From Agromyces fucosus (lineage in GTDB: Bacteria; Actinomycetota; Actinomycetes; Actinomycetales; Microbacteriaceae): 64,000 nucleotides of DNA. Under the pieces are notes generated by a model that saw only the letters and a program-made list of their open reading frames with translations, did no database searches and was not told where the DNA came from. Below, piece after piece: positions 22,308 through 37,401 of the stretch (positions are counted from its first letter, which is position 1; each line of letters opens with the position of its first letter). A program made the position numbers and the translations under genes. The stretch is taken from NCBI RefSeq assembly GCF_004134865.1, contig NZ_SDPO01000002.1, positions 310,001 through 374,000 on the forward strand. The letters run 5' to 3'.

Positions 22308-24595
22308 GCGGCTGGCTCCGCCTCCGCTGCCGCGACGCTCAATGCGATGAGCTGTTCGAGCGCCTCCTCGGGGATCTCCACGCCGGGGAACCGCGCGAAC
22401 TGGCCCATGGGCATCGACTCGACCATCTTCAGCGCATTCGAGTTCGCGGCGGCCGCGTCCTGTTGCTCGGGCGTCGCATTGGCCATCATGCTCTGCATGA
22501 GTGCCGGCCCGACGACGGCGTGACCGAACCACTCCTTCACGGTCGAATCGAGGCTGAGGGGGTTCGGGCGCTCGACGTCGCCCTCGAGCGCCAGCTCGCG
22601 CACTTCGACGATGTCGTTCGCCGAACGACCGAGCTCGACCCGGTACATGCCGGGGTCGACCCACCAGCGTGCGCCGCGCGCGTCCCAGTGCGCGAACGCG
22701 CGGCGCTCGAGTTCGAGCGAGACGGTCGTGGCCTGCCCGGGTTCGAGCGAGATCTTCGCGAACGCGCCGAGCTCCCGAACCGGGCGGCGGACCGACGAGG
22801 GAGCGGGTGCGACGTAGAGCTGCACCACTTCGGAGCCTGCCACCTCGCCCGTGTTCCGTACGGTCACACGCGCGGTCGCGGCATCCGAGCCGATCGCCTC
22901 GACCTCGAAGCCCTCGATGCTGAACGTCGTGTAGCTGAGCCCGTGTCCGAACGGATACCGCACCGCGCGGTCGGCACTCGTGTAGTACCGGTAGCCGACG
23001 AAGACGCCCTCGCCGTGCCGCACGACCTCCTGCTCGCCTGGGAAGTTGAGATAGGTGGGAGTGTCGGTGAGCGCGACCGGAATCGTCTCCGCGAGGTGGC
23101 CCGATGGGTTCACGGCTCCGGTCAGCACGTCGGCGAGCGCGCTGCCGACCGCCTGGCCGAGCGCCCAGCCCTCGACGATCGCGTCGACCCGGTCGTGCCA
23201 CGACTCGAGCGTGACGACGCCGCCGTTCGAGAGCACGACGACCGTCCTCGGCGCGACCTCCGCCACCGCGTCGATGAGTGCGACGTGGGCAGCGGGCAGG
23301 TCGAGGTGCTCCCGGTCGAAGCCCTCCGACTGGTCCTCCTCGTACAGGCCGACGAAGACGACGGCCACGTCGACGGATGCCGCCACCGCACGAGCCTCGG
23401 CGAGCAACGTCAGTGCGGTTTCGTCGGTCGCGTCCTTCTCATAACCCGCTGTATAGGCGACGTAGTCGTCGCCGAGTGCACCGCGCAGCTCATCGAGCGG
23501 CACGTCGACCCGGGTCGGGTTCACGTGGGAGCTACCGCCGCCCTGGTACTGCGGCGAGACGGCCAGTTCGCCGATGACGGCGACCTTGCGACCGGCGCGA
23601 AGCGGCAGGGTCTGCGCCTCGTTCCGAAGCAGCACGACGGATGCCGCGGCCGCACGTCGGGCGAGTGCATGATGCGCCTCGGCATCGAAGCCCTCCGCGG
23701 CATCCGCCGCCGTTGCCGTACGTTCGGCGAGCCGCCGCAGCCGCTCCACGCTCGCCTCGACGAGCGAGCGGTCGAGCCGCCCGTCGCGAACCGCCTGGAG
23801 GATCGCCTCGGTGCCCTCGTCACCGGTGCCCGGCATCTCGAGGTCGAGTCCCGCGGCGAGCGCCTCGACCCGGTCCTTGATCGCACCCCAGTCCGAGACG
23901 ACGAGGCCGTCGAAGCCCCACTCCTCGCGCAGCAGCTCGGTGAGCAGCCAGCGATTCTCCGACGAGAAGACGCCGTTGATCGCGTTGTAGGCGCTCATGA
24001 CCGAGGTCGGCGCCGCCTCCTTCACGACGCGTTCGAAGGCCGGAAGGTAGATCTCGCGCAGCGTGCGGTCGTCGACCTCGGCGCTCACCCGCATGCGCTC
24101 GGTCTCCTGGCTGTTCACCGCGAAGTGCTTGACCGACGTGCCGACACCCGTGCTCTGCACGCCGCGCACATACTCGACGGCGAGCGCGCCCGTGAGCCGC
24201 GGATCCTCCGAGAAGTACTCGAACGTGCGCCCGCCGAGCGGTGAGCGCTTGATGTTGATGGCCGGTCCGAGCAGCACGTCGACGTCGAGCGCGCGTGCTT
24301 CGCGGCCGAGCGCCTCGCCCACCTCGCGCACGAGCGCCGGGTCCCAGCTCGAGGCGATTCCCGCACCGGGCGGGAAGCACGTCGACGGCAGGCTCTGGTT
24401 GAAGCCGAGGTTGTCAGCGGTGCCGCCCTGGCGCCGGACGCCGTGCGGGCCGTCGACCATGACGATCGAGCGGATGCCGCTGCCGCCCCGCGTCGACCAG
24501 AAGTCGTGCCCGCTCAGTAGGGCGGCCCGTGCGTCGAACGTCGCATCGTCCGCTTCGGCGCTGGGGTCGAGGTTCTCGTCGTGGATGCCGGTCAT
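22304..24595 (-). CDS. GH3 beta-glucosidase
   Basis: 763 residues in the normal GH3 order: TIM-barrel domain with KH at 156-157 and nucleophile Asp235 in GLVVSDWGA, alpha/beta sandwich domain, then a C-terminal fibronectin III-like domain (AGSEVVQLYVAP, VRELGAFAKI). RTFEYFSEDPRLTG is the typical substrate loop. No signal peptide, so it acts on imported glycosides. Its ATG overlaps the rhamnosidase stop and its own stop overlaps the esterase GTG. Confidence 0.93.
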   Translation of the reverse strand: MTGIHDENLDPSAEADDATFDARAALLSGHDFWSTRGGSGIRSIVMVDGPHGVRRQGGTADNLGFNQSLPSTCFPPGAGIASSWDPALVREVGEALGREARALDVDVLLGPAINIKRSPLGGRTFEYFSEDPRLTGALAVEYVRGVQSTGVGTSVKHFAVNSQETERMRVSAEVDDRTLREIYLPAFERVVKEAAPTSVMSAYNAINGVFSSENRWLLTELLREEWGFDGLVVSDWGAIKDRVEALAAGLDLEMPGTGDEGTEAILQAVRDGRLDRSLVEASVERLRRLAERTATAADAAEGFDAEAHHALARRAAAASVVLLRNEAQTLPLRAGRKVAVIGELAVSPQYQGGGSSHVNPTRVDVPLDELRGALGDDYVAYTAGYEKDATDETALTLLAEARAVAASVDVAVVFVGLYEEDQSEGFDREHLDLPAAHVALIDAVAEVAPRTVVVLSNGGVVTLESWHDRVDAIVEGWALGQAVGSALADVLTGAVNPSGHLAETIPVALTDTPTYLNFPGEQEVVRHGEGVFVGYRYYTSADRAVRYPFGHGLSYTTFSIEGFEVEAIGSDAATARVTVRNTGEVAGSEVVQLYVAPAPSSVRRPVRELGAFAKISLEPGQATTVSLELERRAFAHWDARGARWWVDPGMYRVELGRSANDIVEVRELALEGDVERPNPLSLDSTVKEWFGHAVVGPALMQSMMANATPEQQDAAAANSNALKMVESMPMGQFARFPGVEIPEEALEQLIALSVAAAEAEPAA

Positions 24596-27078
24596 GCGAG
24601 TGCTCCTTCAGTGTTCGAGTCGGTCACGGCGCGTTCGAGGTCGGCGCGCAGCTCGTCGGATGCCCCGGGGATGTACCCGAGCACGATGGAGAGGCTCATC
24701 GCGGCCGCCTCGGGTGCGGTGCCGTCGATGGGGATACCGGGCAGGTGCTTCGCGAACACCTCGGTGACGTCCCGCCAGACGACCGGGTCGGCCGCGAGCA
24801 CGTTCAGCATCGTGTCCATCGAGTACTCGGGGCGAGAAACCGCGGGCAGTTCATAGCGCCACGAGTGCGCCCCGCCGCCGACGACGGCGGTCGCGGCATC
24901 CGGATGCAGCGGCAGCACGACCTCGGCCTCGACGCCGTCGGGCACCGTGACCTCGAGCGTCACCTCCGCGCCCGCGATCTGCCAGGCGACGGCGATCTCG
25001 CCGTGCACCGACTCGTGGCGAGTGTTCGCCGAGGTGAGCCCGCCGCCCGGCTGCGGGGCGATGCGCACGCGGCGATAGCCGGGCTCGACCGCCTCGATGC
25101 CGCCGACGATGCGGTGCAGCCACGAAGCGACCGCGCCGAGCGCGTAGTGGTTCAGCGAGGTCATGCCAGAGGGGTTGATGGTGCCGTCGGGGCGGATCGA
25201 GTCCCACCGCTCCCAGATCGTCGTCGCGCCCATGGTCACCGGGTAGAGGAACGACGGGCATCGCGTTTCGGTGAGCAGCGCGTAGGCCTCGTCGAGGTGG
25301 CCGGTGCTCGAGAGCGCGTCGGTCACGAGCGGGGTGCCGGCGAAGCCGGTCGAGATCGTGAAGCCCGCCTTCGCGACGAGCTTCGCGAGTTGATCGCCGG
25401 CGTGCCGGCGCTCGTCGGGTTCGAGGATGCCGAAGACGATCGCGAGCGCGTACGCCGTCGCGGTCTCGTTGACGATGCGCCCCGCTTCGGTCACGTACTC
25501 GCGGCGGAAGGCGGCGCGCACCCGGTCGGCGAGCGCCGAGAAGTGCGCCGCGTCGGCATGCTCGCCGAGCAGCGCCGCGGTCTCCGCGAGCTCGCGCGTC
25601 GTCTTGCAGAGGTAGGCGGATGCCACGAGGTGACGATCGGTCTTGCCGCCGGCGGGGTTGTCGCTCGGCGCGTCGGGGTCGAGCCAGTCGCCGTACTGGA
25701 AGCCGGTCGACCACAGACCGTGTTCATCGAGCGACGGCTCGACGCTGCGGATGAACGTCGTCATCGAGGGGTACGCGCGCCGCAGGATCTCGAGGTCGCC
25801 GTACTCCTGATACAGCACCCACGGCAGGCTCACCGCGACATCCGACCACAGCGCCGTCGGCGACGAGGGCGTCGAGAGCACGTCGGGCACGACCCACGGC
25901 ACGAAGCCCTTCTCGCGCTGCTCGGCCGCGAGGTCGTCGAGCCACGAGCCGAGCACGCCGCGCACATCGTAGAGGAATGCGGCCGTCGGCGCGAAGGCGT
26001 TGAGGTCGCCGGTCCAGCCGAGGCGCTCGTCGCGCTGCGGGCAGTCGGTCGGCACGCCGACGAAGTTGTCGCGCATCGACCACACGACGTTCTCGTGCAG
26101 GCGGTTCACGAGCGGGTTCGAGGTCTCGAACCAGCCGGTGCGGGTCATGTCGCTGTGCACCACGACGGCGCGCAGGTCATCGGCAGCAAGCTCGCCGGGC
26201 CAGCCGTCGACCTCGACGTAGCGGAACCCGTGGAACGTGAACCGCGGCTCGAACGTCTCAGCGTCGCCGCCTCGCGCGGTGTAGACGTCGGTCGCCTTCG
26301 CGGTGCGGATCGTCTCGAGATCGAGCTCGCCGTCGGTGAGCGTCTCGGCGTGCCGAAGCGTGATCACATCACCGGATGCCGCGTGCACCGTGAAGCGCAC
26401 CCAGCCCGAGATGTTCTGTCCGAAGTCGACGACGGTGCGGCCGCTCGGGCTCGTCTCGATCGACACGGGTGCCAGTTCCTCGACGCGCCGGATCGGCTCT
26501 GCCGTCGGCTCGAAGAGCGCCTCGGCCGGCCAGTCGAAGGGCTCGACCGCGGTCCAGCTCGCGTCGTCGAAGCCCGGTTCGCTCCACCCCGCGGGTTCGA
26601 GCCGGGCGTCGACGACCTCGCCGTCGTAGATGCTCGAGGAGCGGATCGCACCGAACGAGGTGCGGAACGCGGCATCCGTCGCCACGGTCTCGACCCGGTC
26701 GGGGTACTCCAGCACGAGTACCGCCCAGAGCGCCGGCCGCTCGCTGTAGTGGTTGCGTCGGTGCTCCCAGCCGAGGCGCCCGAGCGCCCAGCCCTCGCCG
26801 ACGATGGCGCCGACCACGTTCTCACCCTCGCGCACGAGTTCGGTGACGTCGTGGCTCGACACCGCGAGGCGGTGCCGGTACGACGTCCACCCCGGCGCGA
26901 GCACCTCATCGCCCACGCGGGCGCCGTTGAGCCAAGGCTCCACGACGCCGATCGCGGTGATGCGCAGCGTCGCGCGTTGCAGGGCAGCGGATGCCTCGAA
27001 CGCTCGTCGGAAGTAGGGCGCCGGGTCTCCCTCTCGCCCGGTCGGGGCCGCGGGGGTGATGAAGGCGGCAGTGGTCAT
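24592..27078 (-). CDS. GH78 alpha-L-rhamnosidase
   Basis: 828 residues. N-terminal beta domains (FEPRFTFHGFRYVEV, GWVRFTVHA) precede an (alpha/alpha)6 barrel with DNFVGVPTDCPQRDERLGWT, which contains the general-acid Glu of the family. GATTIWERWDSIRPDG and MTSLNHYALGAVASWL are also GH78 hallmarks. It would release L-rhamnose from plant glycosides. No signal peptide. GGAGAG precedes the ATG; the gene follows the MFS gene by 37 bases and is translationally coupled to GH3. Confidence 0.94.
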   Translation of the reverse strand: MTTAAFITPAAPTGREGDPAPYFRRAFEASAALQRATLRITAIGVVEPWLNGARVGDEVLAPGWTSYRHRLAVSSHDVTELVREGENVVGAIVGEGWALGRLGWEHRRNHYSERPALWAVLVLEYPDRVETVATDAAFRTSFGAIRSSSIYDGEVVDARLEPAGWSEPGFDDASWTAVEPFDWPAEALFEPTAEPIRRVEELAPVSIETSPSGRTVVDFGQNISGWVRFTVHAASGDVITLRHAETLTDGELDLETIRTAKATDVYTARGGDAETFEPRFTFHGFRYVEVDGWPGELAADDLRAVVVHSDMTRTGWFETSNPLVNRLHENVVWSMRDNFVGVPTDCPQRDERLGWTGDLNAFAPTAAFLYDVRGVLGSWLDDLAAEQREKGFVPWVVPDVLSTPSSPTALWSDVAVSLPWVLYQEYGDLEILRRAYPSMTTFIRSVEPSLDEHGLWSTGFQYGDWLDPDAPSDNPAGGKTDRHLVASAYLCKTTRELAETAALLGEHADAAHFSALADRVRAAFRREYVTEAGRIVNETATAYALAIVFGILEPDERRHAGDQLAKLVAKAGFTISTGFAGTPLVTDALSSTGHLDEAYALLTETRCPSFLYPVTMGATTIWERWDSIRPDGTINPSGMTSLNHYALGAVASWLHRIVGGIEAVEPGYRRVRIAPQPGGGLTSANTRHESVHGEIAVAWQIAGAEVTLEVTVPDGVEAEVVLPLHPDAATAVVGGGAHSWRYELPAVSRPEYSMDTMLNVLAADPVVWRDVTEVFAKHLPGIPIDGTAPEAAAMSLSIVLGYIPGASDELRADLERAVTDSNTEGALA

Positions 27079-27115
27079 GATCGATCTCTCCTGGAGGTCT
27101 CGGGTCGGGAAAGGG

Positions 27116-28459
27116 TCAGCGGACGGACTTGATGCGCAGGATGACGAGTCCGCCGAGCAGCACGAACGCAGCGGCGATGAAGAACAGCAGCGAGTAGTTC
27201 TTCGCGTCGCCGGTCACGCCGATCAGGAGGATTCCCGATGCGATGAAGGGCGCCGCGGCCTGCGGGATCGACGTGGCGAAGCCCGTGATGCCCATGAAGC
27301 GGCCGGCATCCGTCTCCTTCTCAGGCAGCACGTCGAGGAGCAGCGCCATGTCGACCGCGGCGAAAAGGCCGATGCCGAGCGAGACGATCAGCGAGCCCGC
27401 GAAGAGGAACGCGAGATCCGACGACAGAGCCATCGTGACCATGCCGGCCGCCATGATCGCGCCGCCGATCACGAGGAACACCCTGCGGCGGCGCAAGCGG
27501 TCGGAGAGGAAGCCGCCGCCGAGCGCGCCGGCCGTCGTGGCGAGCACGCCGACGGCGCCGAGGGTCCCGATGATGCCCGAGACCTCGGTGATCGAGACAC
27601 CGAGACGCGAGGCGAAGAAGTAGGCCGTGAAGGTCGTATTGAGGGTGAGCCCGAAGTAGAAGAGGAAGCGGCCGAGCCAGTTCCACGAGAAGTCGGGGAA
27701 GCGGCGCGGGTTGTAAACGTACTTCGCCAGCACACCGACCAGGCCGATGCGCTCGAGTGGCAGGGCGCGGCTGTCGTCCTCGTGCACGAGCGTCACGAAG
27801 AGGGTGACGAAGACGACACCGACGACGCCGGGCACCAGGAAGAGCAGCAACGGGTCACCGGTCAAGCCCATGGTGGCGATGACGCCGATGACCGGCGCCA
27901 CCTGAGTCGCGAAGCCGGTGAGGCCGGCCACCTTGCCGCGCTGGGCTTCGGGGAGGCGATCGGCGGTGGAGTTCTGCAGATTGCCGAGCACGGTTCCCCA
28001 GCCCCACTGTGCGAGGATCCAGCCTGCGCCGAGCACGAGCACCGACGGAGCCAACGCCATCACCACCAGTGAGACGACGCCGACGATCATTCCGCCGATC
28101 ATGAACGGGCGCCGCCGCCCGAGTCGTGAACGCGTGCGATCACTCCAGATGCCCATGAACGGGGCGGTCAGCATCACCCAGAGTGCGCCGGCACCGGTGA
28201 TGTAGCCGAGGTACTCCTGGTTGCTCGGAGCCAACTCCCCCAGTCGCACCGCGAGCGAGATCGCGATCGGCGTGATGAACGCCATGAAGACGCCGAACTG
28301 CGCCAGCACCATGAACCAGATGTAGCGAGCGCTGACCTTCGGGAGTTCGGGCGGAGTCGATTGCATCGCGCTCACCGTCTCGGGATCGACGGTGGCGGTG
28401 GCAAGCGGGGAGGGAACGGGAACGACGAGTGGCTCGTCGTCGCGGGCATCGTTGCGCAT
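27116..28459 (-). CDS. MFS sugar/glycoside transporter
   Basis: 447 residues with 12 predicted helices. The cytoplasmic motif SDRTRSRLGRRRPFMIGG after helix 2-3 is typical of the glycoside-pentoside-hexuronide-like MFS group. First gene of the rhamnosidase operon, so it likely imports rhamnosylated glycosides, which the downstream GH78, GH3 and esterase then dismantle. The start ATG at 28459 has GGAG four bases upstream. Divergent from a LacI regulator with two operators between. Confidence 0.88.
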   Translation of the reverse strand: MRNDARDDEPLVVPVPSPLATATVDPETVSAMQSTPPELPKVSARYIWFMVLAQFGVFMAFITPIAISLAVRLGELAPSNQEYLGYITGAGALWVMLTAPFMGIWSDRTRSRLGRRRPFMIGGMIVGVVSLVVMALAPSVLVLGAGWILAQWGWGTVLGNLQNSTADRLPEAQRGKVAGLTGFATQVAPVIGVIATMGLTGDPLLLFLVPGVVGVVFVTLFVTLVHEDDSRALPLERIGLVGVLAKYVYNPRRFPDFSWNWLGRFLFYFGLTLNTTFTAYFFASRLGVSITEVSGIIGTLGAVGVLATTAGALGGGFLSDRLRRRRVFLVIGGAIMAAGMVTMALSSDLAFLFAGSLIVSLGIGLFAAVDMALLLDVLPEKETDAGRFMGITGFATSIPQAAAPFIASGILLIGVTGDAKNYSLLFFIAAAFVLLGGLVILRIKSVR

Positions 28460-28487
28460 GGGACTCCATTGTCTGGGGGAACGGCAG

Positions 28488-28543
28488 CTAGCGCGTGCTA
28501 GTGAATGGCGTCGATGCTACATTGGGGAACTAGCGCGCGCAAG
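28488..28543. promoter_or_regulatory. Twin LacI-type operators between MFS operon and lacI
   Basis: Site 1, CTAGCGCGTGCTAG (28488-28501), is an inverted repeat CTAGC-N4-GCTAG; site 2, CTAGCGCGCGCAAG (28530-28543), differs by one base per arm. They are 42 bp apart, four helical turns, which suits cooperative binding by the LacI protein encoded next to them. Confidence 0.7.
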
Positions 28544-28568
28544 TCCCGCGAGCGAAGAGAGGCAACGG

Positions 28569-29570
28569 ATGTCCCAGTCGACGAGCAACCGCCGTGTCAC
28601 CGCGGCCGACATCGCGCGCTCGCTCGGCATCTCGCGTGCGACGGTCGGGTTCGTGCTCAACGAGACCCCGGGACAGACCATCTCCGAGGCGACGCGCTCG
28701 CGAGTGCTCGACGAGGCGAAGCGGCTCGGCTACCGACCGCACATCGCCGCGCGGGCCCTCGCGAGCGGACGAACCCGCATCGTGCTGCTCGTGCTGCCCG
28801 ACTGGCCCCTCGACTTCAACCTGCGCCGCAACATCGAGGAGGCCTCGCTCGCACTCGACGAGGCAGGCTACGCGCTCATCACCTACACGCCGCACCCGAC
28901 CGGCCTCTCCCGCCCGCTTTGGGAGACCCTGCAACCCGACGTGGTGATGTCGATGGCAGCGTTCGCGCCGGGGGTGGCGGAATCGATCCGCGCCTCCGGC
29001 GTCACGCGACTCATCCCCGATCCCGAGATGCCCGTGGCCGACGAGTATTCCGAAGACGGCCCGGTGCTCCAGTTGCAGCACCTGTTCGACCTCGGGCACC
29101 GATCGATCGCGTTCGCGGGATCAGCCGACCCGCGCGTCGCCGACCTCGTCGAGCTCCGTCGACAGCGCGCGGGCGAGGCCGCGGAGTCGTTGGGACTTCC
29201 GCCGCTGCGCTTTGCCGACATCGAGCTGACGGATGCCTCGGCAGCCGCCGCCATTCACGATTGGCGCTCGTCGGGCGTCACGGCCGTCGCGGCATACAAC
29301 GACGACGTCGCCGCCTCGCTCGTCGGCGCTGCGCTCCGCGCCGGGATCTCGGTGCCGCGCGAGCTCTCGGTCGTCGGCCACGATGACACTCCGCTCGCGT
29401 CGATGTTCGAGCCGCGCCTCTCCACGATCCACATGAACACCGTCGGGCTCGGGCGCTATCTCGCGGCACTCGCGCTCAGTGCGGTGGAGGAACGGCCGGT
29501 ACCGAGCGCAGGTCCCGAGCTGCAGCTCGCGGTCGTTCCGCGAGACTCGTCGGCACCGGCGCCGCTCTGA
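28569..29570 (+). CDS. LacI-family regulator of the rhamnoside operon
   Basis: 333 residues. N-terminal HTH VTAADIARSLGISRATVGFVLNE and the hinge RPHIAARALASGRTRIV precede a periplasmic-binding-protein-like effector domain ending in VVGHDDTPLASMFEPRLSTIHM. ATG 28569 is used because it fits the family N-terminus; longer frames read through the operators. It likely represses both its own gene and the divergent MFS operon. Confidence 0.93.
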   Translation: MSQSTSNRRVTAADIARSLGISRATVGFVLNETPGQTISEATRSRVLDEAKRLGYRPHIAARALASGRTRIVLLVLPDWPLDFNLRRNIEEASLALDEAGYALITYTPHPTGLSRPLWETLQPDVVMSMAAFAPGVAESIRASGVTRLIPDPEMPVADEYSEDGPVLQLQHLFDLGHRSIAFAGSADPRVADLVELRRQRAGEAAESLGLPPLRFADIELTDASAAAAIHDWRSSGVTAVAAYNDDVAASLVGAALRAGISVPRELSVVGHDDTPLASMFEPRLSTIHMNTVGLGRYLAALALSAVEERPVPSAGPELQLAVVPRDSSAPAPL

Positions 29571-29585
29571 TCGGCACTTGCGCAC

Positions 29586-30527
29586 TCACGCGCTCACGGT
29601 GATCGAGCGAAGCGCGTACTGCCGCACCCGCACGAACCGCGTCGCGGCGCACGTCGACAGCAGGGGTTCGGAGTGCGTCTCCTCCAGGTCGACCACGATG
29701 TTGCCGGCACCGGCGGCATGACCGTCAGCGGTGCCCGCATCGGTACCACCGGCGCCCCCGGCCCCGGCCAGTCGCACGCGCCAACCGCCTTCCGCCGCCT
29801 CCTCCGCGATCGGCGCGAACGAGTCGATGCGCTCATCGCCGAAGGCTTCGCGGGCGAAGTGCTGTGCGGCCTGCACGGGATGCGTCAGCGAGCTGCGACC
29901 CCGGAACTGCTCGGGCACGATGCGGCCGTCGTCGAAGGCGTCGGCGATGCGCACGGGGTCGCCGTCGTCGGCGTACCCGTAGTAGAGGCCGTGCGGGAAG
30001 ACCACCATGGTTCCGGCGAACCGGTCGCCGCCGAGGTGCGAGCACTCCCAGGTCTCCTCGGGGCGCGCTTCGGCGAGCGCGGTCACGACCCGGCGGCCGC
30101 GCACGGCGCAGCACTGGTCGTGCCTGGCGTGGGTGCAGATGCAGTAGACGGGTCGGGTCGAGGGCGTGCCCGTCGACCCGTCGAGCGGCACGTCGAGCAG
30201 CGCCGCGGCATCCGCCACCTCACCCCACACGACACGTTCCCGACCCGGCCGTGAATCGACGATCGCCCACCGCTGCGTCGCCGGGGCGGCGCGCCGACCC
30301 GTTCGACGGATCGCGAGCGGCCGCATGCCCGCGCCCTCGATTCGACGCACGAGGGCACGGCCGAGCTCGCGGTCGAACGGCGCGTCGAGCAGGGCGTTCT
30401 GACCCCAGCTTCCTGCGACCTCGATGAGGAACCATCGCAGACCGCGAGGGCCCGTGCCGACGAGCGGGTCGTGCCGTTCGCGAGCGCGATCGCTGCACGG
30501 GGCCCAGTGCTCGACGGCGAGCGTCAC
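29586..30527 (-). CDS. Sucrase/ferredoxin-like protein (thioredoxin-fold, possible 2Fe-2S)
   Basis: 313 residues. The Suc_Fer-like motifs are clear: YCICTHARHDQCCAVRG with Cys 129, 131, 139 and 140, then WECSHLGGDRFAGTMVVFPHG with Cys162. Family members are thioredoxin-fold ferredoxin-like proteins, sometimes with [2Fe-2S]; the function is poorly known. GTG 30527 overlaps the JmjC gene stop as GTGA. It is last in a three-gene operon with the repeat peptide and the dioxygenase, so it may supply electrons there (inference). Confidence 0.8.
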   Translation of the reverse strand: MTLAVEHWAPCSDRARERHDPLVGTGPRGLRWFLIEVAGSWGQNALLDAPFDRELGRALVRRIEGAGMRPLAIRRTGRRAAPATQRWAIVDSRPGRERVVWGEVADAAALLDVPLDGSTGTPSTRPVYCICTHARHDQCCAVRGRRVVTALAEARPEETWECSHLGGDRFAGTMVVFPHGLYYGYADDGDPVRIADAFDDGRIVPEQFRGRSSLTHPVQAAQHFAREAFGDERIDSFAPIAEEAAEGGWRVRLAGAGGAGGTDAGTADGHAAGAGNIVVDLEETHSEPLLSTCAATRFVRVRQYALRSITVSA

Positions 30528-31759
30528 GCGGGCGCCACCACGAATCCCTCGCGCACGAGGCGTCGCACGACGACGACCGCGCTCTCGGTGTCGAGGCCCG
30601 GCAGCTCGCTGGGCGCGACGACCCCGCCCGCGACGAGCCGTCGCACCGCCGGTTCCGCCTCGACCGGCAACGACAACGTCTTCGCGCGCCCGACGATGCG
30701 CACCCGGTCGTCGATCGTGGTGACCCGCACGGGCAGCGACGCACGCCAGCGCACGGGCGTCGACGCATCCAACGTCGCGAGCGCCTCGAGCGTCGAGAGG
30801 GGCGCGATCGGTTCCGCGCGGGTCGCGGCATCGAACCGGTCTGCGAGCACGGCGGCCGGCCGCGAGGCATCCGTCTGCTGCAGCGTCTCGATGAGGGCCT
30901 GAATCGTCTGCGCGACGACCGGTGCGATCGCCTCCGTGTCGCGCAGGTCGATGCCGAGTGGAAGCGACCCTCGCAGGGCGGCGTTGTCGCCGACCTCGCG
31001 GAGGAGCGCGTCGACGAGGTCGGCGCGCGTGTACGCCGCCATGCCGACGGTCAGGTGCACGGATGTCGCGCCGAGCGCGGTCGCCGAATGGATCCACCCG
31101 CGCGGCAGGTAGAGCGCATCGCCGGGGCGCAGCACCGCATCGATCACCGGCTCGCCCGTGGCAGCTCGGGCGACCGCACCGCGATGCCGGTCCCACGGCT
31201 GGGAGCGCAGCGGGTCGACGAGCACCGGCGCGTGGATGCGCCAGTGCTTCTCGCCCGAGACCTGCAGCACGAACACGTCGTGGGTGTCGTAGTGCGCGTC
31301 GAACCCCTGCGACGACGGCGGGGTGACATAGGCGTTGACCTGCGCCGGGTGCCCGAGGTCGTCGATGAGCTCGCGCGTGAAGTCGATGATCGGCGGCCAC
31401 AGGCGGTGCAGCCCCTGCAGCACGATGGTCGCGCCGCCCGCGAACTCGGCGAGCACCTTGTCGCTCGAGACCTGGTCGGCGATCTCGGCGCCGAAACCAC
31501 CTGGTGCGGTGTACGACGATGCCGCGAGCACCGACCCCTCGTTCGCCATGCGGATGAACGGGGTGCGCACTCCGCGACGCGTGATGAGCTCGTCGACGGC
31601 GGCGACCGAGAACAGGTCGTCGAAGCCGCGGTCGAGCTCGGCGGCCGGCGAGAGCAGCGGTTGACTGCCCCAGTACCGGGCGGCGAACTCGTCGGCGGGA
31701 ACGCTGATGCAGCGCGAGAGCGCGGGTCGACTGCTCGACCCGCGCTCCGGGTCGGTCAC
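30524..31759 (-). CDS. JmjC/cupin Fe(II)/2-oxoglutarate protein hydroxylase
   Basis: 411 residues, the length of ribosomal oxygenases (YcfD/RoxA, NO66, MINA53). The JmjC core has metal ligands H156 and D158 in GFDAHYDTHDVF and H224 in PRGWIHSA, after the LQVSGEKHWRIH strand. A C-terminal helical/winged-helix part follows, as in that clade. The family hydroxylates Arg or His in ribosomal proteins. Here the gene begins with a GTG overlapping the stop of a small repeat peptide gene, so the peptide is a candidate alternative substrate. Confidence 0.85.
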   Translation of the reverse strand: MTDPERGSSSRPALSRCISVPADEFAARYWGSQPLLSPAAELDRGFDDLFSVAAVDELITRRGVRTPFIRMANEGSVLAASSYTAPGGFGAEIADQVSSDKVLAEFAGGATIVLQGLHRLWPPIIDFTRELIDDLGHPAQVNAYVTPPSSQGFDAHYDTHDVFVLQVSGEKHWRIHAPVLVDPLRSQPWDRHRGAVARAATGEPVIDAVLRPGDALYLPRGWIHSATALGATSVHLTVGMAAYTRADLVDALLREVGDNAALRGSLPLGIDLRDTEAIAPVVAQTIQALIETLQQTDASRPAAVLADRFDAATRAEPIAPLSTLEALATLDASTPVRWRASLPVRVTTIDDRVRIVGRAKTLSLPVEAEPAVRRLVAGGVVAPSELPGLDTESAVVVVRRLVREGFVVAPA

Positions 31760-32019
31760 TCCGCCGAACCGTCCGCGCCGCCGTCGTGGCCACCGGGGTT
31801 CGCGCCGCCATCCGCGACGCCCTCCCCCGCAGCCGCCGAGCCGTCGGCGCCGCCGTCGTGGCCTCCGGGGTTCGCGCCGCCGTCGGCCGTGCCTTCGCCG
31901 CCGGCCTCGGCCGACCCGTCGGCACCGCCGTCGTGGCCCTCGGGGTTGGCACCGCCGTCGGCGGTGCCTTCGCCTTCAGCGCCGGGCTCGCGGGTGATGT
32001 CGTCATCGTTGATCGTCAT
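31756..32019 (-). CDS. 87-residue acidic Gly/Ala/Asp repeat peptide
   Basis: A 16-residue leader-like start (MTINDDDITREPGAEG) is followed by three near-identical 22-25-residue repeats of the type EG(T/V)ADGGANPxGHDGGADGSA. His lies at 29, 54 and 78 and Asn at 25, 50 and 74. No Cys, aromatic residue, signal peptide or membrane segment. ATG 32019 has the strong SD GAGGAGAGGA. The stop overlaps the GTG of the JmjC oxygenase. I recognise no named family. A substrate or precursor of the co-encoded oxygenase, or a disordered accessory protein, are the options. Confidence 0.75.
   Translation of the reverse strand: MTINDDDITREPGAEGEGTADGGANPEGHDGGADGSAEAGGEGTADGGANPGGHDGGADGSAAAGEGVADGGANPGGHDGGADGSAE
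31759..31971 (-). repeat. Three in-frame tandem repeats of about 72-75 bp
   Basis: They encode residues 17-87 of the small peptide: units at about 17-41, 42-65 and 66-87. Units 2 and 3 differ by T to V and small changes in the Ala spacer; unit 1 has Glu for Gly in NPxG. Confidence 0.9.
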
Positions 32020-32125
32020 GAGCATTCCTCTCCTCGCCTGCCCGCTCAGCGTATCGAGGGCATGCCGTCTGCGGAACCGGTTGACGGATCGCGTTCGTCG
32101 CCTCCACGGCCAGGATCGAACGCGA

Positions 32126-32159
32126 CGAAGGGCGGATGCCACGTGGCATCCGCCCTTCG
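32126..32159. terminator. Terminator at the end of the GH3 operon
   Basis: A perfect 34-base inverted repeat whose arms begin CGAAGGGCGGATGCCAC, between the membrane GH3 stop (32207) and the peptide-gene start (32019). It ends the GH3 transcript and separates the next operon, whose promoter must lie in 32020-32125. Confidence 0.75.
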
Positions 32160-32206
32160 TCCGCTCGCGCTCGTTCGCGCTCGTTCGCGGCCCGTGGCCG
32201 CTCAGC

Positions 32207-34951
32207 TCACTGGAACAGCTCGGTCTGGAGCAGCGCGTAGCTCACGGCGTGCACGCGGTCGCGGAGGCCGTTGCCCACGCCGACCGGGTCCTCGTCGTAC
32301 GCCTGCTTCACCGAGCTGACGACCGAGCTCGACAGCGGGGCGAGCATGAGGTCGTTGCCGTAGCGCACGGCGAGCGCCGGGTCCATGAACCCGCCGAGCA
32401 CCGCGTCCGTCGAGACGACGCCGTCGAAGCCCCACTCGCCGCGCAGCACCTCCTGGAGGAGCTGCTCGTTGCCGCCCGCCCAGCTGCCGCCGATGTTGAT
32501 GAACGAGGACATCGCGCCCATCGCGCCGCCCTCCTTCACGCTGATCTCGAAGGGCTTCAGGTAGAGCTCGCGCAGCGCCTGCTCGTCGACGAAGACGTTG
32601 ACGCCGGGGGCCCGCGCGTTGATCTCCTGGTCGTTCAGCACGAAGTGCTTCATGAAGGTGAGCACGTGCTTGCTCTGCGCGCCCGAGATCATGCCGGCCG
32701 CCATCTTGCCCGAGAGCAGCGGGTCCTCGGAGAAGTACTCGAAGTCGCGACCGCCCATCGCGGTGCGGTGCAGGTTCATGCCCGGGGCGTACCAGCCCTC
32801 GATGCCGTAGGCGTTCGCCTCTGCGCCGACCGATTCGCCGAGTTCGAAGGCGAGCTCGTCGTTCCAGGTCGAGGCGACGACGATCTCGGTCGGGTACGCG
32901 GCCGCCGTGATGTCGCCGAAGAAGAAGCTCAGGCCCGACGGGCTGTCGAGCAGCACCGCCGAGGGCACTCCGAGCCGCTCGACCGCCGCGGTCTCGTAAG
33001 CGCCCTTCGCGAAGAGGTCGATGAGCTCGTCGCGGGTGAACTGGTCGAGGAACAGCTCCCACTTCGGGTCGTCGTAGTCGAGGCCGGCGAGGTCCTCGAG
33101 CATGAGGCCGTTGTCGGCTTCGTAGGTGGGCACCTCGCCCTCGGCCGGTGCGATCTCAGGGTCCATCAACGCGAGGGTCTCCTCGGATGCCTCGTGGTCG
33201 ATGTCGTCGGCGCTCGGGTAGGTGCCCTCCCAGTCGGCCCGAGAGAGGTACTCCACGTCGCCTTCCGCGTAGCCGAAGCGGTTCTCGAGCTCCACGCCCG
33301 TGGTCTCGTCGGTGCCGTAGACCGTCGTGTCGGCGACCGCGATCGGGAACTCGGCGACGGGCGTGTGCACGTCGGTCGCGACGGAGATGTCGTACTGTCC
33401 CGCGTCGAGCACGTAGGCGCCTTCGGCTGTGTTCCACGACGCGAGGTCGCGCAGTGCGAACTCGACGGTGACGGTCTCCGACGCCCCGGGCTCGAGCAGA
33501 GAGGTCTTCGCGTAGCCGGTGAGCGTGATCGCCGACTTCTCGACGCCGCCCGGCGTGTACGGTGCCGAGGCGTAGACCTCGACGATGTCCTTGCCGGCCG
33601 TGTCGCCCGTGTTGGCGACCGTCACGTCGACGCTGACCCGACCCTCGGCGACGACCGGCGTGCTCGCCGTCCACTCGAAGTCGGTGTAGCTCAGGCCGTA
33701 GCCGAAGGGGTACTGCACGGCGGCCTGGTAGCCCGCCTCGTCGTCGACGTATCGGGTCTCGTAGTAGCGGTAGCCGACGTAGATGCCCTCGGCGTAGTCG
33801 AGGAAGCCGCGCTTGGTGTTGTCGTACTGGAAGTCACCGTAGTTGACCGTCGAGGGCGCGCTCGTGACGTCGTAGGCGTAGGTGTCGGTCAAGCGGCCCG
33901 AGGGGTTGACCTCGCCGGTCAGCACCTTCGCGAGCGAGACCGCTCCGCGCGGACCCGGGGTGCCGATCCAGACGGCGCCGGTGATCTGCGGGTACTCGTC
34001 GAGGAAGCCGAGCTCCATCTGGTTGCCCGAGTTGACGATCACGACGACCTGGTCGAACGACGCCGTCACGGTGTCGAACAGTTCGCGCTGCTCGTCGGTG
34101 AGCGCGAGCTCGCCCGCCGTCATGTCGGCGCTTTCGACGCCGTCGTTGCCGATGACGACGAGCGCGGTGTCGGCGAAGCCCTTCGCCTGCGCTATGACGT
34201 CGTCGGTCAGGTAGTCGGGTGCGGGCTCCGTGCCCTTGCCGCTCCCCGACACCATCTGGGCGATCGCGATGAGGCCGTTGGCGGCGCCCTCCTCGGTCTT
34301 CGCGCCGGCGTCCTGCATGGCACCGTACAGCTCGGGGTTGTAGGCGACGCCCTGCTCCTCGAGCGCGTCGTAGAGGGTGACGGCGCTCGACTGATCGGAG
34401 CCGCCCGAGCCGTTGCCCCCGTACCGCAGGTTGAACGACGCGAAGCTGAAGACGTTGACCTTCTGCTCGGCGAGCGGAAGTACGCCGTCGTTCTTCAGCA
34501 GCACGATGCCCTCGTCGGAGATCTGCTCGGCCACCACGGCACCATGCTCGCGAGCGGCGACGCCGTCGGCGGTCGACGAGTCGACGGTGATCGACAGCAG
34601 CCGGCTGATGTCCGAGACGACGGGCGCGGCCAGCACGGCCAGGATCGCGACGACGGCGACCACGACGGTCCAGCCGATCGCACGCTGCGGCCGGTGCTTG
34701 ACCTTGCGGTACACCCGCTCGCGGCGCGAGTCGAGGCGGCGCTCGGCGCGCGTCATCGTGGCGCGCCGGGCGGCGCGCTCCGCCTTCGCTGCCTTCTTCG
34801 CCGCACGGGCCTCAGCCCGGTGGGCGGCCTTCGCGGCCGCGCGCTCCTCGCGCGGCATCGCCTTCAGCTCGGCGCGCCACTGCTTCGCGAGTTCGCGCTC
34901 CGCTCTGACGCGGGCCACGGCCTCCTGCTTGATCTCCTTGCGTGTCGCCAC
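32207..34951 (-). CDS. Membrane-anchored, domain-permuted GH3 beta-glycosidase
   Basis: 914 residues. A very basic helical N-terminus (1-90, many Ala, Lys, Arg, Glu) is followed by one transmembrane segment (about 92-112). The alpha/beta sandwich domain (DEGIVLLKNDGVLPLAE onward) and the fibronectin III-like domain come first; the TIM barrel comes last, with DFEYFSEDPLLSG, KH in FMKHFVLND and the likely nucleophile Asp in FDGVVSTDAVLGG. This order is the reverse of standard GH3 and is known from some permuted members. The catalytic part should face outside. GTG 34951 starts two bases after the upstream GH3 stop. Confidence 0.88.
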   Translation of the reverse strand: MATRKEIKQEAVARVRAERELAKQWRAELKAMPREERAAAKAAHRAEARAAKKAAKAERAARRATMTRAERRLDSRRERVYRKVKHRPQRAIGWTVVVAVVAILAVLAAPVVSDISRLLSITVDSSTADGVAAREHGAVVAEQISDEGIVLLKNDGVLPLAEQKVNVFSFASFNLRYGGNGSGGSDQSSAVTLYDALEEQGVAYNPELYGAMQDAGAKTEEGAANGLIAIAQMVSGSGKGTEPAPDYLTDDVIAQAKGFADTALVVIGNDGVESADMTAGELALTDEQRELFDTVTASFDQVVVIVNSGNQMELGFLDEYPQITGAVWIGTPGPRGAVSLAKVLTGEVNPSGRLTDTYAYDVTSAPSTVNYGDFQYDNTKRGFLDYAEGIYVGYRYYETRYVDDEAGYQAAVQYPFGYGLSYTDFEWTASTPVVAEGRVSVDVTVANTGDTAGKDIVEVYASAPYTPGGVEKSAITLTGYAKTSLLEPGASETVTVEFALRDLASWNTAEGAYVLDAGQYDISVATDVHTPVAEFPIAVADTTVYGTDETTGVELENRFGYAEGDVEYLSRADWEGTYPSADDIDHEASEETLALMDPEIAPAEGEVPTYEADNGLMLEDLAGLDYDDPKWELFLDQFTRDELIDLFAKGAYETAAVERLGVPSAVLLDSPSGLSFFFGDITAAAYPTEIVVASTWNDELAFELGESVGAEANAYGIEGWYAPGMNLHRTAMGGRDFEYFSEDPLLSGKMAAGMISGAQSKHVLTFMKHFVLNDQEINARAPGVNVFVDEQALRELYLKPFEISVKEGGAMGAMSSFINIGGSWAGGNEQLLQEVLRGEWGFDGVVSTDAVLGGFMDPALAVRYGNDLMLAPLSSSVVSSVKQAYDEDPVGVGNGLRDRVHAVSYALLQTELFQ

Positions 34952-34953
34952 GT

Positions 34954-37401
34954 CTAGTCCTCTCCCCGCGTCCGTGCGGTTCGTCGATGGGTGCGCCATG
35001 CGGCCACGAAACGGGCGGCACCGCGCCAGAAGCGGCCGTTGACCGCGATGAGCAGCGCGTCGACCATCTCGTCGCTGACCGATCCGCCCGACAGGCGGGA
35101 GATCGATCGGAACGGGAGGTCGAGCGCGAAGCGGATGTTGTTGGCCGTGAGCGGGCGGCCGAGCCGCATGACGAGTCGGCTCGCGCCGTCGATCACGCCG
35201 TGCATCAGGCTCGCGAATCCGCCGCGGCCGCGCGTGCGGGCGACGATGTCGTCGCGGGTGAGCGGCTGGTTGGCGGGCCACATCGAGGGCGGCAGCTCGC
35301 GACCGAGCAGGGCCGCGTACTCGGCGTCGCCCACCAGCTCGACCCGGCCCGTCGCGTAGTGCGGCAGGGCGGAGGTCCCGGTGGACGGCATCGGCGAACC
35401 TGCGACCTCGAGTTCGGCACGCAGACGGATGTCGCGCGACGACGCCGCGGCCAGGACGGAATACCTGCCCCCGATCGTGCGCCAGTCGTCCGCATCGGCG
35501 TCGAAGACGTCGAACGCGTGCTCGGCGTACGGGATCTCGACGGTCGCCGATTCGCCGGGCGCGAGGTCGACCTTCGCGAAGCCGCGCAGCTCGCGCGGCG
35601 CCCGGATGACTCCCGCCGCGGCATCCGGGGCCTCGACGTAGAGCTGCACCGTCTCGGTGCCCGCTCGATCGCCGGTGTTGGTGACGGTGACGATCGCGGA
35701 CGTCGGGCCGGCGCTCAGGTCGGAGTAGGCGAACGTCGTGTAGCCGAGGCCGTGCCCGAAGGGGTAGCGCACGGCCGCGTCGACCTTGTCGAAGTACCGG
35801 TAGCCGACGTAGACGTGTTCGCGGTGCTCCGAGGTGGCCTCGGTGCGTCCGTACGTGGCCGACGACGGGACATCCTCGTATCGGATCGGGTAGGTCTCGG
35901 CGAGGCGACCGCCGGGGTTCACTTGGCCCGTGAGCACCTCGGCGACCGCGCGACCGCCGCCCTGGCCGGCCAGGGAGCTGTGCACGATCGCGTCGACGTC
36001 ATCGGCGAACGGGAGCTCGACGGCTGCGCCGCCCGCGAGCACGACGACGACGGGCACGTCGAGCGCCGTGAGCTCGCGCACGAGCGCGAGCTGGTTCTCG
36101 GCGAGGCGCATGTGCGATCGGTCGACGCCCTCGGCCTCGGCCGATTCGTCGAGGCCGAGGAAGAGCAGCACCACGTCGGCGCGTCGGGCCAAGCGGATGG
36201 CGCGGCGACGGCAGCCGCTCGATCGCCGGTCCATGCGTGCGAAGCCCGGCTCGTAGCCGATCACGTCGAGCTCGGACTCGCGAAGGGCGTCGAGCGCGGC
36301 GTCGATCCTCGTCGGGTTCACGAGCGAACTGCCGGCGCCCTGGTAGCGCGGCCGGGCCGCGAAGTCGCCGATGACGGCGACCTTGCCTGCGCCCTCGCCG
36401 AGCGGGAGGATCGAGCGGCGGTTCTCGAGCAGCACGATCGAGCGGCGTGCCGCCTCGACGGCCAGGTCGTGGTGCGCGTCGTAGTCGACGGCGGATGCCT
36501 CGACCGGCTGCGTCCGCGTCCGGGCCCGCGTCCGCTCGATGAGCGCGAGCAGTTCGCCGACCCGGTCGTCGAGCACGGCCTCGTCGAGGTCGCCGTGCTC
36601 GACCGCATGAACGACCTCCCGGTCGGTCACGCCGTTCGTCGACGGCATCTCGAGGGCGTTGCCGGCGAGGAGCCCGCGCACCCGGTCGTTGTTGCCGCCC
36701 CAGTCGGTGACGACGAGCCCGTCGAAGCCCCACCGCTGCCGGAGGATGTCGCCCAGCAGGTGCCGATTCTCGTTCGCGTAGGTGCCGTTGACCTTGTTGT
36801 AGGCGCTCATCACTGTCCACGCGTCGCCCTCGGTGATCGCGATGCGGAAGCCCTCGAGGTAGATCTCGTGCAGCGCGCGCTCATCGACGATCTCGTCGAT
36901 GCTCATGCGGTGCGTCTCCTGGCTGTTGACCGCGAAGTGCTTGACGCTCGCCGCGACGCCGCGGGACTGGATGCCGCGCACCTTCGCCGCGGCCAGCACG
37001 CCGGACAGCAGGGGATCCTCGGAGAAGTACTCGAAGTTCCGGCCCGCGAGGGGGTTGCGCTTGATGTTGAGCCCCGGGCCGAGCAGCACGCTCACGCGCT
37101 CGGCCGCCGCCTCGTCGCCGAGCGCCTGGCCCACTCGACCGACGAGGTCGCGATCCCAGCTGTTCGCCAAAGCGGCGGCCGGAGGGAAGCAGGTCGCGGG
37201 AATGCTCGCGTTGAGCCCGAGGTGGTCGGCGGCGCCGCCCTGCTTGCGCAGGCCGTGCGGACCGTCGGTGAGCATGATCGAGGGCACGCCGAGGCGCGCG
37301 ACGGGCTTCGTATTCCAGAAGTTCGCGCCCGAGGTCAGCGACGCCTTCTCGGCCAGCGTCATGCGCTCGATCAGTTCAGCGTCGTTGCGTGGAGTGGACA
37401 C
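34954..37401 (-). CDS. GH3 beta-glucosidase with C-terminal extension
   Basis: 815 residues, standard domain order: LTDGPHGLRKQ, NFEYFSEDPLLSG, KH at 154-155 and nucleophile Asp233 in LVVTDWGGNND. An alpha/beta domain and fibronectin III-like domain follow, then about 130 extra residues (AEYAALLGRELPPSMWPANQ onward) seen in a subset of actinobacterial and firmicute GH3s. No signal peptide. Start GTG 37401. It is divergent from a TetR gene across an 18-bp palindrome and is co-transcribed with the membrane GH3, suggesting outside-then-inside hydrolysis of one substrate. Confidence 0.9.
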   Translation of the reverse strand: MSTPRNDAELIERMTLAEKASLTSGANFWNTKPVARLGVPSIMLTDGPHGLRKQGGAADHLGLNASIPATCFPPAAALANSWDRDLVGRVGQALGDEAAAERVSVLLGPGLNIKRNPLAGRNFEYFSEDPLLSGVLAAAKVRGIQSRGVAASVKHFAVNSQETHRMSIDEIVDERALHEIYLEGFRIAITEGDAWTVMSAYNKVNGTYANENRHLLGDILRQRWGFDGLVVTDWGGNNDRVRGLLAGNALEMPSTNGVTDREVVHAVEHGDLDEAVLDDRVGELLALIERTRARTRTQPVEASAVDYDAHHDLAVEAARRSIVLLENRRSILPLGEGAGKVAVIGDFAARPRYQGAGSSLVNPTRIDAALDALRESELDVIGYEPGFARMDRRSSGCRRRAIRLARRADVVLLFLGLDESAEAEGVDRSHMRLAENQLALVRELTALDVPVVVVLAGGAAVELPFADDVDAIVHSSLAGQGGGRAVAEVLTGQVNPGGRLAETYPIRYEDVPSSATYGRTEATSEHREHVYVGYRYFDKVDAAVRYPFGHGLGYTTFAYSDLSAGPTSAIVTVTNTGDRAGTETVQLYVEAPDAAAGVIRAPRELRGFAKVDLAPGESATVEIPYAEHAFDVFDADADDWRTIGGRYSVLAAASSRDIRLRAELEVAGSPMPSTGTSALPHYATGRVELVGDAEYAALLGRELPPSMWPANQPLTRDDIVARTRGRGGFASLMHGVIDGASRLVMRLGRPLTANNIRFALDLPFRSISRLSGGSVSDEMVDALLIAVNGRFWRGAARFVAAWRTHRRTARTRGED

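What the first reader, a model, noticed from the sequence alone, without database searches (positions are those of the whole stretch)
29586..32019. Candidate new peptide-modification system: repeat peptide, JmjC oxygenase, ferredoxin-like protein
Three genes overlap by GTGA. The first encodes a leader-like stretch plus three repeats each holding ADGGANPxGHDGGADGSA, with one His, one Asn and several Asp in fixed register. The second is an intact 2-oxoglutarate hydroxylase of the ribosomal-oxygenase clade, which acts on protein His/Arg side chains. The third is a Cys-rich thioredoxin-fold protein. Together they could hydroxylate the peptide repeats, giving either a RiPP-like product or a modified metal-binding protein.
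Basis: partly seen in the sequence, partly recalled or inferred. Interest (0 to 1): 0.75.

Follow-up and report, generated by a model that had tools for sequence, protein, structure and literature searches.

The report
Oxygenase-paired Asp-repeat peptide cassette
Actinobacteria carry a three-gene set that makes a small aspartate-rich repeat peptide together with an oxygen-using enzyme and an iron-sulfur-type protein that probably modify it, and what the product does is still open.

Summary
On the minus strand of an Agromyces contig three genes overlap by GTGA: an 87-aa peptide with three 18-aa repeats, an intact JmjC_2 (ribosomal-oxygenase fold) protein, and a Suc/Fer thioredoxin-like ferredoxin. 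The set behaves as one unit. Each gene occurs in the same 17 of 60 Agromyces genomes. The peptide lies upstream of the oxygenase in 80 of 80 of its closest relatives, and the ferredoxin follows in 71 of 80. The 30 genomes with a peptide match, of 388 in the class, all have it beside an oxygenase. The repeats are under protein-level purifying selection.

His/Asn as modified residues is less well supported. In the wider phylum both are often missing, while cores stay Asp-rich and change from DGGA to DADGTDGD- or DADASDAD-type repeats. Best reading: a leader-guided oxygenase hydroxylates side chains, most likely Asp, of a disordered acidic repeat peptide. Gly and Ala are as universal as Asp, so the site is inferred. 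Metal binding is plausible but unproven. No protease or exporter is conserved, so a classical RiPP is not shown. New variant of a known kind.

The parts
31756..32019 (-). precursor / repeat peptide gene, 87 aa
   Evidence: homologues upstream of the oxygenase in 80 of 80 loci; pN/pS about 0.1 in the repeats
31993..32019 (-). leader-like N-terminus MTINDDDIT; I3, D5, D7 and I8 invariant in 25 aligned Microbacteriaceae peptides
   Evidence: relaxed acidic-[IMV]-[TS] motif in 137 of 161 distinct upstream frames; stricter form at 4 of 471 control gene starts
31909..31962 (-). repeat 1, residues 20-37 ADGGANPEGHDGGADGSA
   Evidence: read
31834..31887 (-). repeat 2, residues 45-62 ADGGANPGGHDGGADGSA
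   Evidence: read
31762..31815 (-). repeat 3, residues 69-86 ADGGANPGGHDGGADGSA
   Evidence: read
32026..32035 (-). ribosome-binding-like GAGGAGAGGA, 6 bases before the ATG
   Evidence: read; no test made
31756..31759 (-). GTGA overlap of peptide stop and oxygenase start
30524..31759 (-). JmjC_2 2-oxoglutarate/Fe(II) oxygenase, 411 aa; H156, D158, H224, K171 invariant; C-terminal strand-strand-strand / helix domain 345-403
30524..30527 (-). GTGA overlap of oxygenase stop and ferredoxin start
29586..30527 (-). Suc_Fer-like thioredoxin-fold [2Fe-2S] ferredoxin-type protein

Best explanation
The cassette is a self-contained peptide-modification unit. The acidic N-terminal stretch (DDDIT and its variants DEDIxT, DDDMT) acts as a leader that docks on the oxygenase, probably on its C-terminal winged-helix domain. 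The JmjC_2 oxygenase then uses Fe(II), O2 and 2-oxoglutarate to hydroxylate side chains along the disordered acidic repeat, most likely the beta-carbon of Asp, several times per peptide. The thioredoxin-like [2Fe-2S] protein supplies electrons, either to keep the oxygenase iron ferrous or to reduce metal held by the product. The product is a multiply hydroxylated acidic polymer suited to binding hard metal ions. Shown: the gene set, its co-inheritance, its conservation in many actinobacterial families, intact active-site residues, predicted folds, and Asp-rich cores throughout. Inferred: that the peptide is the substrate, that Asp is the site, the leader docking, the bound cluster and its electron role, and the metal role.
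For: All-or-none presence of the three genes in the same 17 of 60 Agromyces genomes. Peptide directly upstream in 80 of 80 nearest oxygenase loci. No orphan peptide: in all 30 genomes with a match, of 388 searched, it lies beside an oxygenase. Ferredoxin downstream in 71 of 80. In other classes of the phylum 11 of 12 fetched loci show an Asp-rich precursor of another repeat type (the twelfth is cut by a contig end) and 11 of 12 the ferredoxin. An upstream frame with over 12% Asp is seen in 157 of 160 distinct cases against 33 of 469 control gene starts in the same loci. Purifying selection on the repeats. Model of the oxygenase (pLDDT 91.5) matches the NO66 histidyl hydroxylase, TM 0.71 of query, rmsd 6.0. 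Precedent: the JmjC protein BipG hydroxylates Orn in a ribosomal precursor (PMC12707348, passages), as does the related cupin PbsQ (PMC12257519, passages).
Against: No hydroxylation was observed; nothing here is biochemical. Asp is not alone: of 138 distinct cores chosen by their leader, 138 hold Asp, 138 Gly, 138 Ala and 136 Ser; Asp is preferred for density and chemistry. The count of 163 of 163 cores with Asp is circular, since that script picked frames by Asp content. The nearest solved enzymes act on His or Arg, not Asp. 9 of 80 loci lack the ferredoxin next door (in one, L114, the contig ends 226 bases after the oxygenase), so it is not strictly needed. Two genomes (G433, G615; L206, L175) keep the oxygenase but have neither a DGGA peptide nor the ferredoxin beside it. 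24 of 161 distinct frames lack the leader motif even in relaxed form (L053 and L104 among them are cut by a contig end). No metal-related gene is seen next to this clade.
Confidence: 0.45

Rival explanations
1. Same system, but the modified residue is the His or Asn of each repeat, in line with the His/Arg chemistry of known ribosomal oxygenases; Asp is only spacer or metal ligand.
For: Nearest solved relatives are the histidyl hydroxylases NO66 and MINA. His and Asn are nearly invariant in the Microbacteriaceae peptides, and 123 and 112 of 138 leader-chosen cores hold a His and an Asn.
Against: L161, L163, L166, L176, L178, L181, L207-L211, L213-L216 and L218 have cores without His (read); peptides of Actinokineospora type lack the Asn, all next to homologous oxygenases. 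Specificity could have changed in those clades, so this is not excluded for the window's own peptide.
Confidence: 0.22
2. The peptide is not a substrate but an intrinsically disordered acidic partner: a chaperone, inhibitor or metal buffer for the oxygenase and ferredoxin, whose real target is elsewhere, for example a ribosomal protein.
For: Low-complexity acidic sequence; enzyme fold shared with ribosomal oxygenases; no further conserved gene in the set.
Against: Oxygenase and peptide are strictly co-inherited in Agromyces, and the rest of the genus lives without both. A leader-like N-terminus is conserved separately from the repeats.
Confidence: 0.2
3. A classical RiPP: leader removed, core exported as a bioactive or metallophore-like product, using housekeeping protease and transporter.
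For: Distant JmjC_2 paralogues sit with short leader-core peptides and an S9 peptidase (4 of the 4 loci with that peptide, L183, L186-L188), in L188 also with a FhuF-type 2Fe-2S protein and an MFS transporter; a Streptomyces clavuligerus plasmid has peptide, JmjC, S9 peptidase and ABC transporter genes near one another.
Against: tblastn with the L188 S9, FhuF and MFS proteins found none of them in the 80 loci (flanks of up to 6 kb), and no fourth family exceeds 8 of 80.
Confidence: 0.12
4. Chance or artefact: a GC-rich low-complexity frame beside an unrelated cupin.
For: Sequence is repetitive and 87 aa long; Asp-rich frames by chance are not rare in these genomes (33 of 469 control starts).
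Against: Co-occurrence and selection data above.
Confidence: 0.01

Closest known systems
BipG / BpmG and PbsQ, JmjC or cupin ornithine hydroxylases of biphenomycin-type RiPPs
   Same: 2-oxoglutarate JmjC-type enzyme that hydroxylates a side chain of a ribosomal precursor encoded nearby (PMC12707348, PMC12257519; passages seen)
   Different: There: one Orn in a short core, with MNIO, arginase, B12 radical SAM and TldD protease. Here: acidic repeat core without Orn, partner is a thioredoxin-like ferredoxin, no other conserved maturation gene
Ribosomal oxygenases NO66, MINA53, YcfD (RoxA)
   Same: Fold, HxD...H and Lys in register, C-terminal winged-helix-like domain
   Different: Their substrates are ribosomal proteins; here a dedicated peptide gene is co-inherited and the set is dispensable
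Suc_Fer-like / Apd1-Aim32 thioredoxin-like [2Fe-2S] proteins
   Same: PF06999 domain, thioredoxin-like ferredoxin fold, CX8C (family motif from PMC8482512 passages)
   Different: The HX3H of Aim32 reads HX3D here (H166, D170 invariant in 39 rows); frequent partner of a JmjC enzyme
RRE-bearing JmjC_2 proteins noted in PMC12710340
   Same: PF08007 protein with a strand-strand-strand / helix C-terminal domain; that paper says bacterial homologues of its eukaryotic cases appear in RiPP-like contexts (section 6 read)
   Different: No particular precursor, repeat or ferredoxin is described in that section

Membership tests
JmjC_2 / ribosomal-oxygenase fold | PF08007 above gathering score | tested here: met
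   104.7 bits against 22
JmjC_2 / ribosomal-oxygenase fold | HxD...H iron triad and 2OG lysine | tested here: met
   H156, D158, H224, K171 invariant in 36 rows, in register with NO66; the naming as ligands is recalled
JmjC_2 / ribosomal-oxygenase fold | acts on a ribosomal protein | not testable with these tools
   indirect evidence against it as sole role: absent from 43 of 60 Agromyces genomes
RiPP pathway | precursor gene next to a modifying enzyme, conserved as a pair | tested here: met
   80 of 80 loci; 30 of 30 genomes
RiPP pathway | leader conserved apart from a more variable core | tested here: met
   DDDIT-type motif in 137 of 161 distinct frames while the core type changes, stricter form at 4 of 471 control starts; 24 of 161 lack it
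RiPP pathway | peptide-recognition domain (RRE-like) on the enzyme | tested here: inconclusive
   model order E345-349 E352-356 E361-365 H366-376 (383-385) H391-403 fits, but ordinary ribosomal oxygenases have a winged-helix domain too; Pfam found nothing in this stretch
RiPP pathway | protease and/or exporter in the set | tested here: not met
   no fourth neighbour family in more than 8 of 80 loci
RiPP pathway | chemical modification of the precursor | not testable with these tools
   needs mass spectrometry
Suc_Fer / thioredoxin-like ferredoxin | domain and fold | tested here: met
   PF06999 58.4 bits against 34.9; Aquifex thioredoxin-like ferredoxin best by sequence (E 0.0091) and by fold (E 4.3e-3), both modest
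Suc_Fer / thioredoxin-like ferredoxin | CX8C and HX3H of bis-histidinyl [2Fe-2S] proteins | tested here: inconclusive
   CX8C (C133, C142) kept; HX3H reads HX3D; other invariant His (H135, H138) could serve

The most novel reading that the evidence does not exclude
A phylum-wide class of ribosomally encoded hydroxy-aspartate polymers. One leader-guided JmjC enzyme hydroxylates many Asp residues per chain, a dedicated thioredoxin-like [2Fe-2S] protein drives the redox side, and the product stays in the cell as a tunable iron or calcium binder, its capacity set by the number of repeats.
Probability: 0.2. Interest if true: 0.85.

Novelty: new variant of a known kind. Interest (0 to 1): 0.62.

Why it matters
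It turns an unannotated 87-aa frame into the substrate candidate for a large group of uncharacterised JmjC_2 enzymes in actinobacteria, and links a Suc/Fer ferredoxin to a usual partner. The natural series of cores (DGGA, DADGTDGD, DADASDAD) narrows the likely site towards Asp and can be tested in one co-expression experiment. If Asp is hydroxylated many times per chain, this is a substrate preference unlike the His/Arg hydroxylases found, and a gene-encoded way to make beta-hydroxy-Asp polymers.

Tried and rejected
Chance low-complexity frame: rejected. DNA-level repeat slippage: rejected, since repeats of one gene differ at 45% of synonymous sites. A fourth partner gene: not found (flanks of up to 6 kb, frames of 120 aa or more; an earlier longest-frame version was marred by antisense frames). 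Fixed genomic site: not supported; one flank protein on each side (LacI, GH3) was looked for, and among L001-L048 (1.5 kb flanks) only the window's own loci hold them, nor do the four Agromyces loci L049-L051 and L056 with 6 kb flanks. Conserved upstream operator: looked at 29 upstream stretches by eye and saw none; no statistical test. Known family for the peptide: none in Pfam or NCBIfam. Literature: ten searches of an open-access library listed no paper that by title or abstract is about this cassette; the repeat strings searched are in no held paper. Subscription papers were not searched. The annotation name 'BatC' for such peptides is a recollection that no call confirmed.

Limits of counts: loci include some genomes twice. 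In one search the start codon and frame were chosen by script for Asp content and the core taken after residue 18, so its Asp count (163 of 163) is circular and its His (135) and Asn (115) counts are rough; one search was run as a control for this, and my confidence in the Asp reading was lowered from 0.5 to 0.45 for it. One search picks cores by leader, so precursors without leader are left out of it (138 distinct cores, from 205 loci with repeats of the same genome collapsed). In one search, the L175, L206 and L180 frames are doubtful precursors. The class, family and phylum scans drew genomes evenly, not all. One search used a Microbacteriaceae-type profile, so other core types are missed there; searches drew 394 and 388 genomes, not quite the same set.
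Full report
What is there. The window is G000:C2:310001-374000 of a 4.0 Mb genome; the nearest named relatives are Agromyces. The minus strand holds, in order, an 87-aa peptide gene (31756-32019), a 411-aa JmjC_2 protein (30524-31759) and a Suc_Fer-like protein (29586-30527), each overlapping the next by GTGA. The peptide has no Pfam or NCBIfam match.

It is a unit. In 60 Agromyces genomes each of the three genes is found in 17, and they are the same 17. In 299 genomes of the family the peptide is found in 34. In the 48 loci fetched (some genomes twice) the peptide is in all 48 and the oxygenase beside it in 47; L047 ends at a contig end. A script found the peptide upstream in 77 of 80, and reading the other three shows it there too, cut by a contig end in L053 and L104 and by masked bases in L078. 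The ferredoxin follows in 71 of 80; L068, L071, L093, L107-L109, L113, L114 and L119 lack it, L114 because the contig ends. A separate peptide-profile scan of 388 genomes of the class gave 30 with a match, and in all 30 it lies beside an oxygenase (by coordinates).

The repeats are protein-level features. In 21 Microbacteriaceae peptides the 17-codon repeat core shows pN 0.052 and pS 0.525 between species, and 0.046 and 0.451 between repeats of the same gene.

What is conserved in the core. In the nearest family the pattern is DGGANxxGHDGGADGSA with His and Asn nearly invariant. Mycobacteria, Gordonia and Rhodococcus use DGGSNPxGHDGGADG(T/S/P)A. Further out, DGGADGGADGGA runs and EGTPGVQDGGADGGA units appear, often without Asn and sometimes without His. 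In genomes of other classes of the phylum (L207-L218; 11 of 12, L217 being cut by a contig end) and in some of the same class (L176, L178, L179, L181, L185) the oxygenase stands with a different Asp-rich repeat such as DADGTDGDGTDG, TDTDTTDTD or DADASDADA; the ferredoxin was found in 13 of the 15 loci. One search counted residues in 163 distinct precursors, but picked them for Asp content. As a control, an upstream frame with more than 12% Asp in its last 60 residues is seen in 157 of 160 distinct real cases and at 33 of 469 starts of other long frames in the same loci; and of 138 distinct cores picked by the leader motif instead, 138 hold Asp, 138 Gly, 138 Ala, 136 Ser, 132 Pro, 123 His and 112 Asn. 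So Asp is universal together with Gly and Ala; it is the one of the three with a functional side chain. An acidic leader motif in relaxed form remains in 137 of 161 distinct frames; a stricter form occurs at 4 of 471 control starts. On a tree of 62 oxygenases the context labels (DGGA, other Asp repeat, RiPP-like, outlier) are clustered (5 changes against 24.7 in shuffles), with 12 of the 15 other-repeat rows in one starred branch (98/95); the deep branches are weak. Exceptions: L175 and L206 (two genomes of one genus) keep an oxygenase with no DGGA peptide and no ferredoxin next to it; L175 groups with the DGGA oxygenases on the tree.

Folds. The oxygenase model (36 rows, pLDDT 91.5) matches NO66 (TM 0.71 of the query, rmsd 6.0, E 2.2e-26), then MINA53 and YcfD. 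H156, D158, H224 and K171 are invariant and in register with NO66. Its end (345-403) has three strands followed by helices, the order given for RRE domains; a 2025 survey reports RRE-like folds on some PF08007 proteins and RiPP-like contexts for bacterial homologues (PMC12710340, section 6). A winged-helix domain is part of ordinary ribosomal oxygenases too, so this is suggestive only. The third protein (39 rows, pLDDT 87.8) contains a thioredoxin-like [2Fe-2S] ferredoxin domain, by modest matches. CX8C is kept, while HX3H of Aim32 (PMC8482512, passages) reads HX3D.

Surroundings. The window's neighbours are a rhamnosidase, an MFS transporter, a LacI regulator and two GH3 glycosidases, a sugar-use cluster with no evident tie to the cassette: neither of the two flank proteins tested is near the cassette in other Agromyces loci, and in 80 loci no fourth family is shared by more than 8. 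So the cassette seems to work alone and to be kept or lost as a block. In contrast, distant JmjC_2 paralogues stand with short leader-core peptides ending in DSDGTDSSSDFI-like cores and an S9 peptidase in the 4 of 4 loci with that peptide, one also with a FhuF-type 2Fe-2S protein and an MFS transporter, and one on a S. clavuligerus plasmid with an S9 peptidase and an ABC transporter nearby. These look like RiPP clusters with acidic cores and place the cassette in that neighbourhood.

How it most likely works. The oxygenase binds the acidic leader and hydroxylates Asp along the repeat; the ferredoxin provides electrons; the product is a hydroxylated acidic chain that may bind metal. The pairing of enzyme and peptide is well supported (about 0.8 by my judgement), Asp as the site moderately (about 0.45, lowered from 0.5 after one search showed Gly and Ala equally universal), a metal role weakly (about 0.2). 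The precedent for chemistry is BipG, which hydroxylates Orn in a precursor (PMC12707348, passages).

Verdict. Observation confirmed; interpretation partly supported: the system is real and wider than thought, the proposed His/Asn sites are not those that are best conserved, and RiPP membership fails the protease/exporter feature and cannot be tested for modification here.

Noticed in passing
window 32207-34969 (-): GH3 protein whose Pfam domains come in reversed order: the C-terminal domain (155-400) lies before the N-terminal domain (661-862); the next gene, 34954-37401, has the usual order.
   Followed up: no
window 24592-37401: Sugar-use cluster around the cassette: alpha-L-rhamnosidase, MFS, LacI regulator, two GH3 enzymes; the cassette lies inside it.
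   Followed up: partly
L183, L186, L187, L188: Probable RiPP clusters: short peptide ending ...DxDGTDxSSDFI, JmjC_2 paralogue, S9 peptidase; L188 also FhuF-type 2Fe-2S protein and MFS.
   Followed up: partly
L222 5760-7155: Streptomyces clavuligerus plasmid: 48-aa peptide with ADNDPSDPPIAIADPDPFDPVI before a JmjC_2 protein, S9 peptidase and ABC transporter nearby.
   Followed up: partly
G616:C1:60589-61768: Oxygenase match falls in two adjoining pieces in different frames, peptide still upstream: perhaps a frameshifted copy.
   Followed up: no
L175 and L206: Oxygenase with a different, conserved, non-repetitive acidic frame upstream (L206...DDPELSGADLPEDQADGQGPTVEPGA) and no ferredoxin.
   Followed up: no
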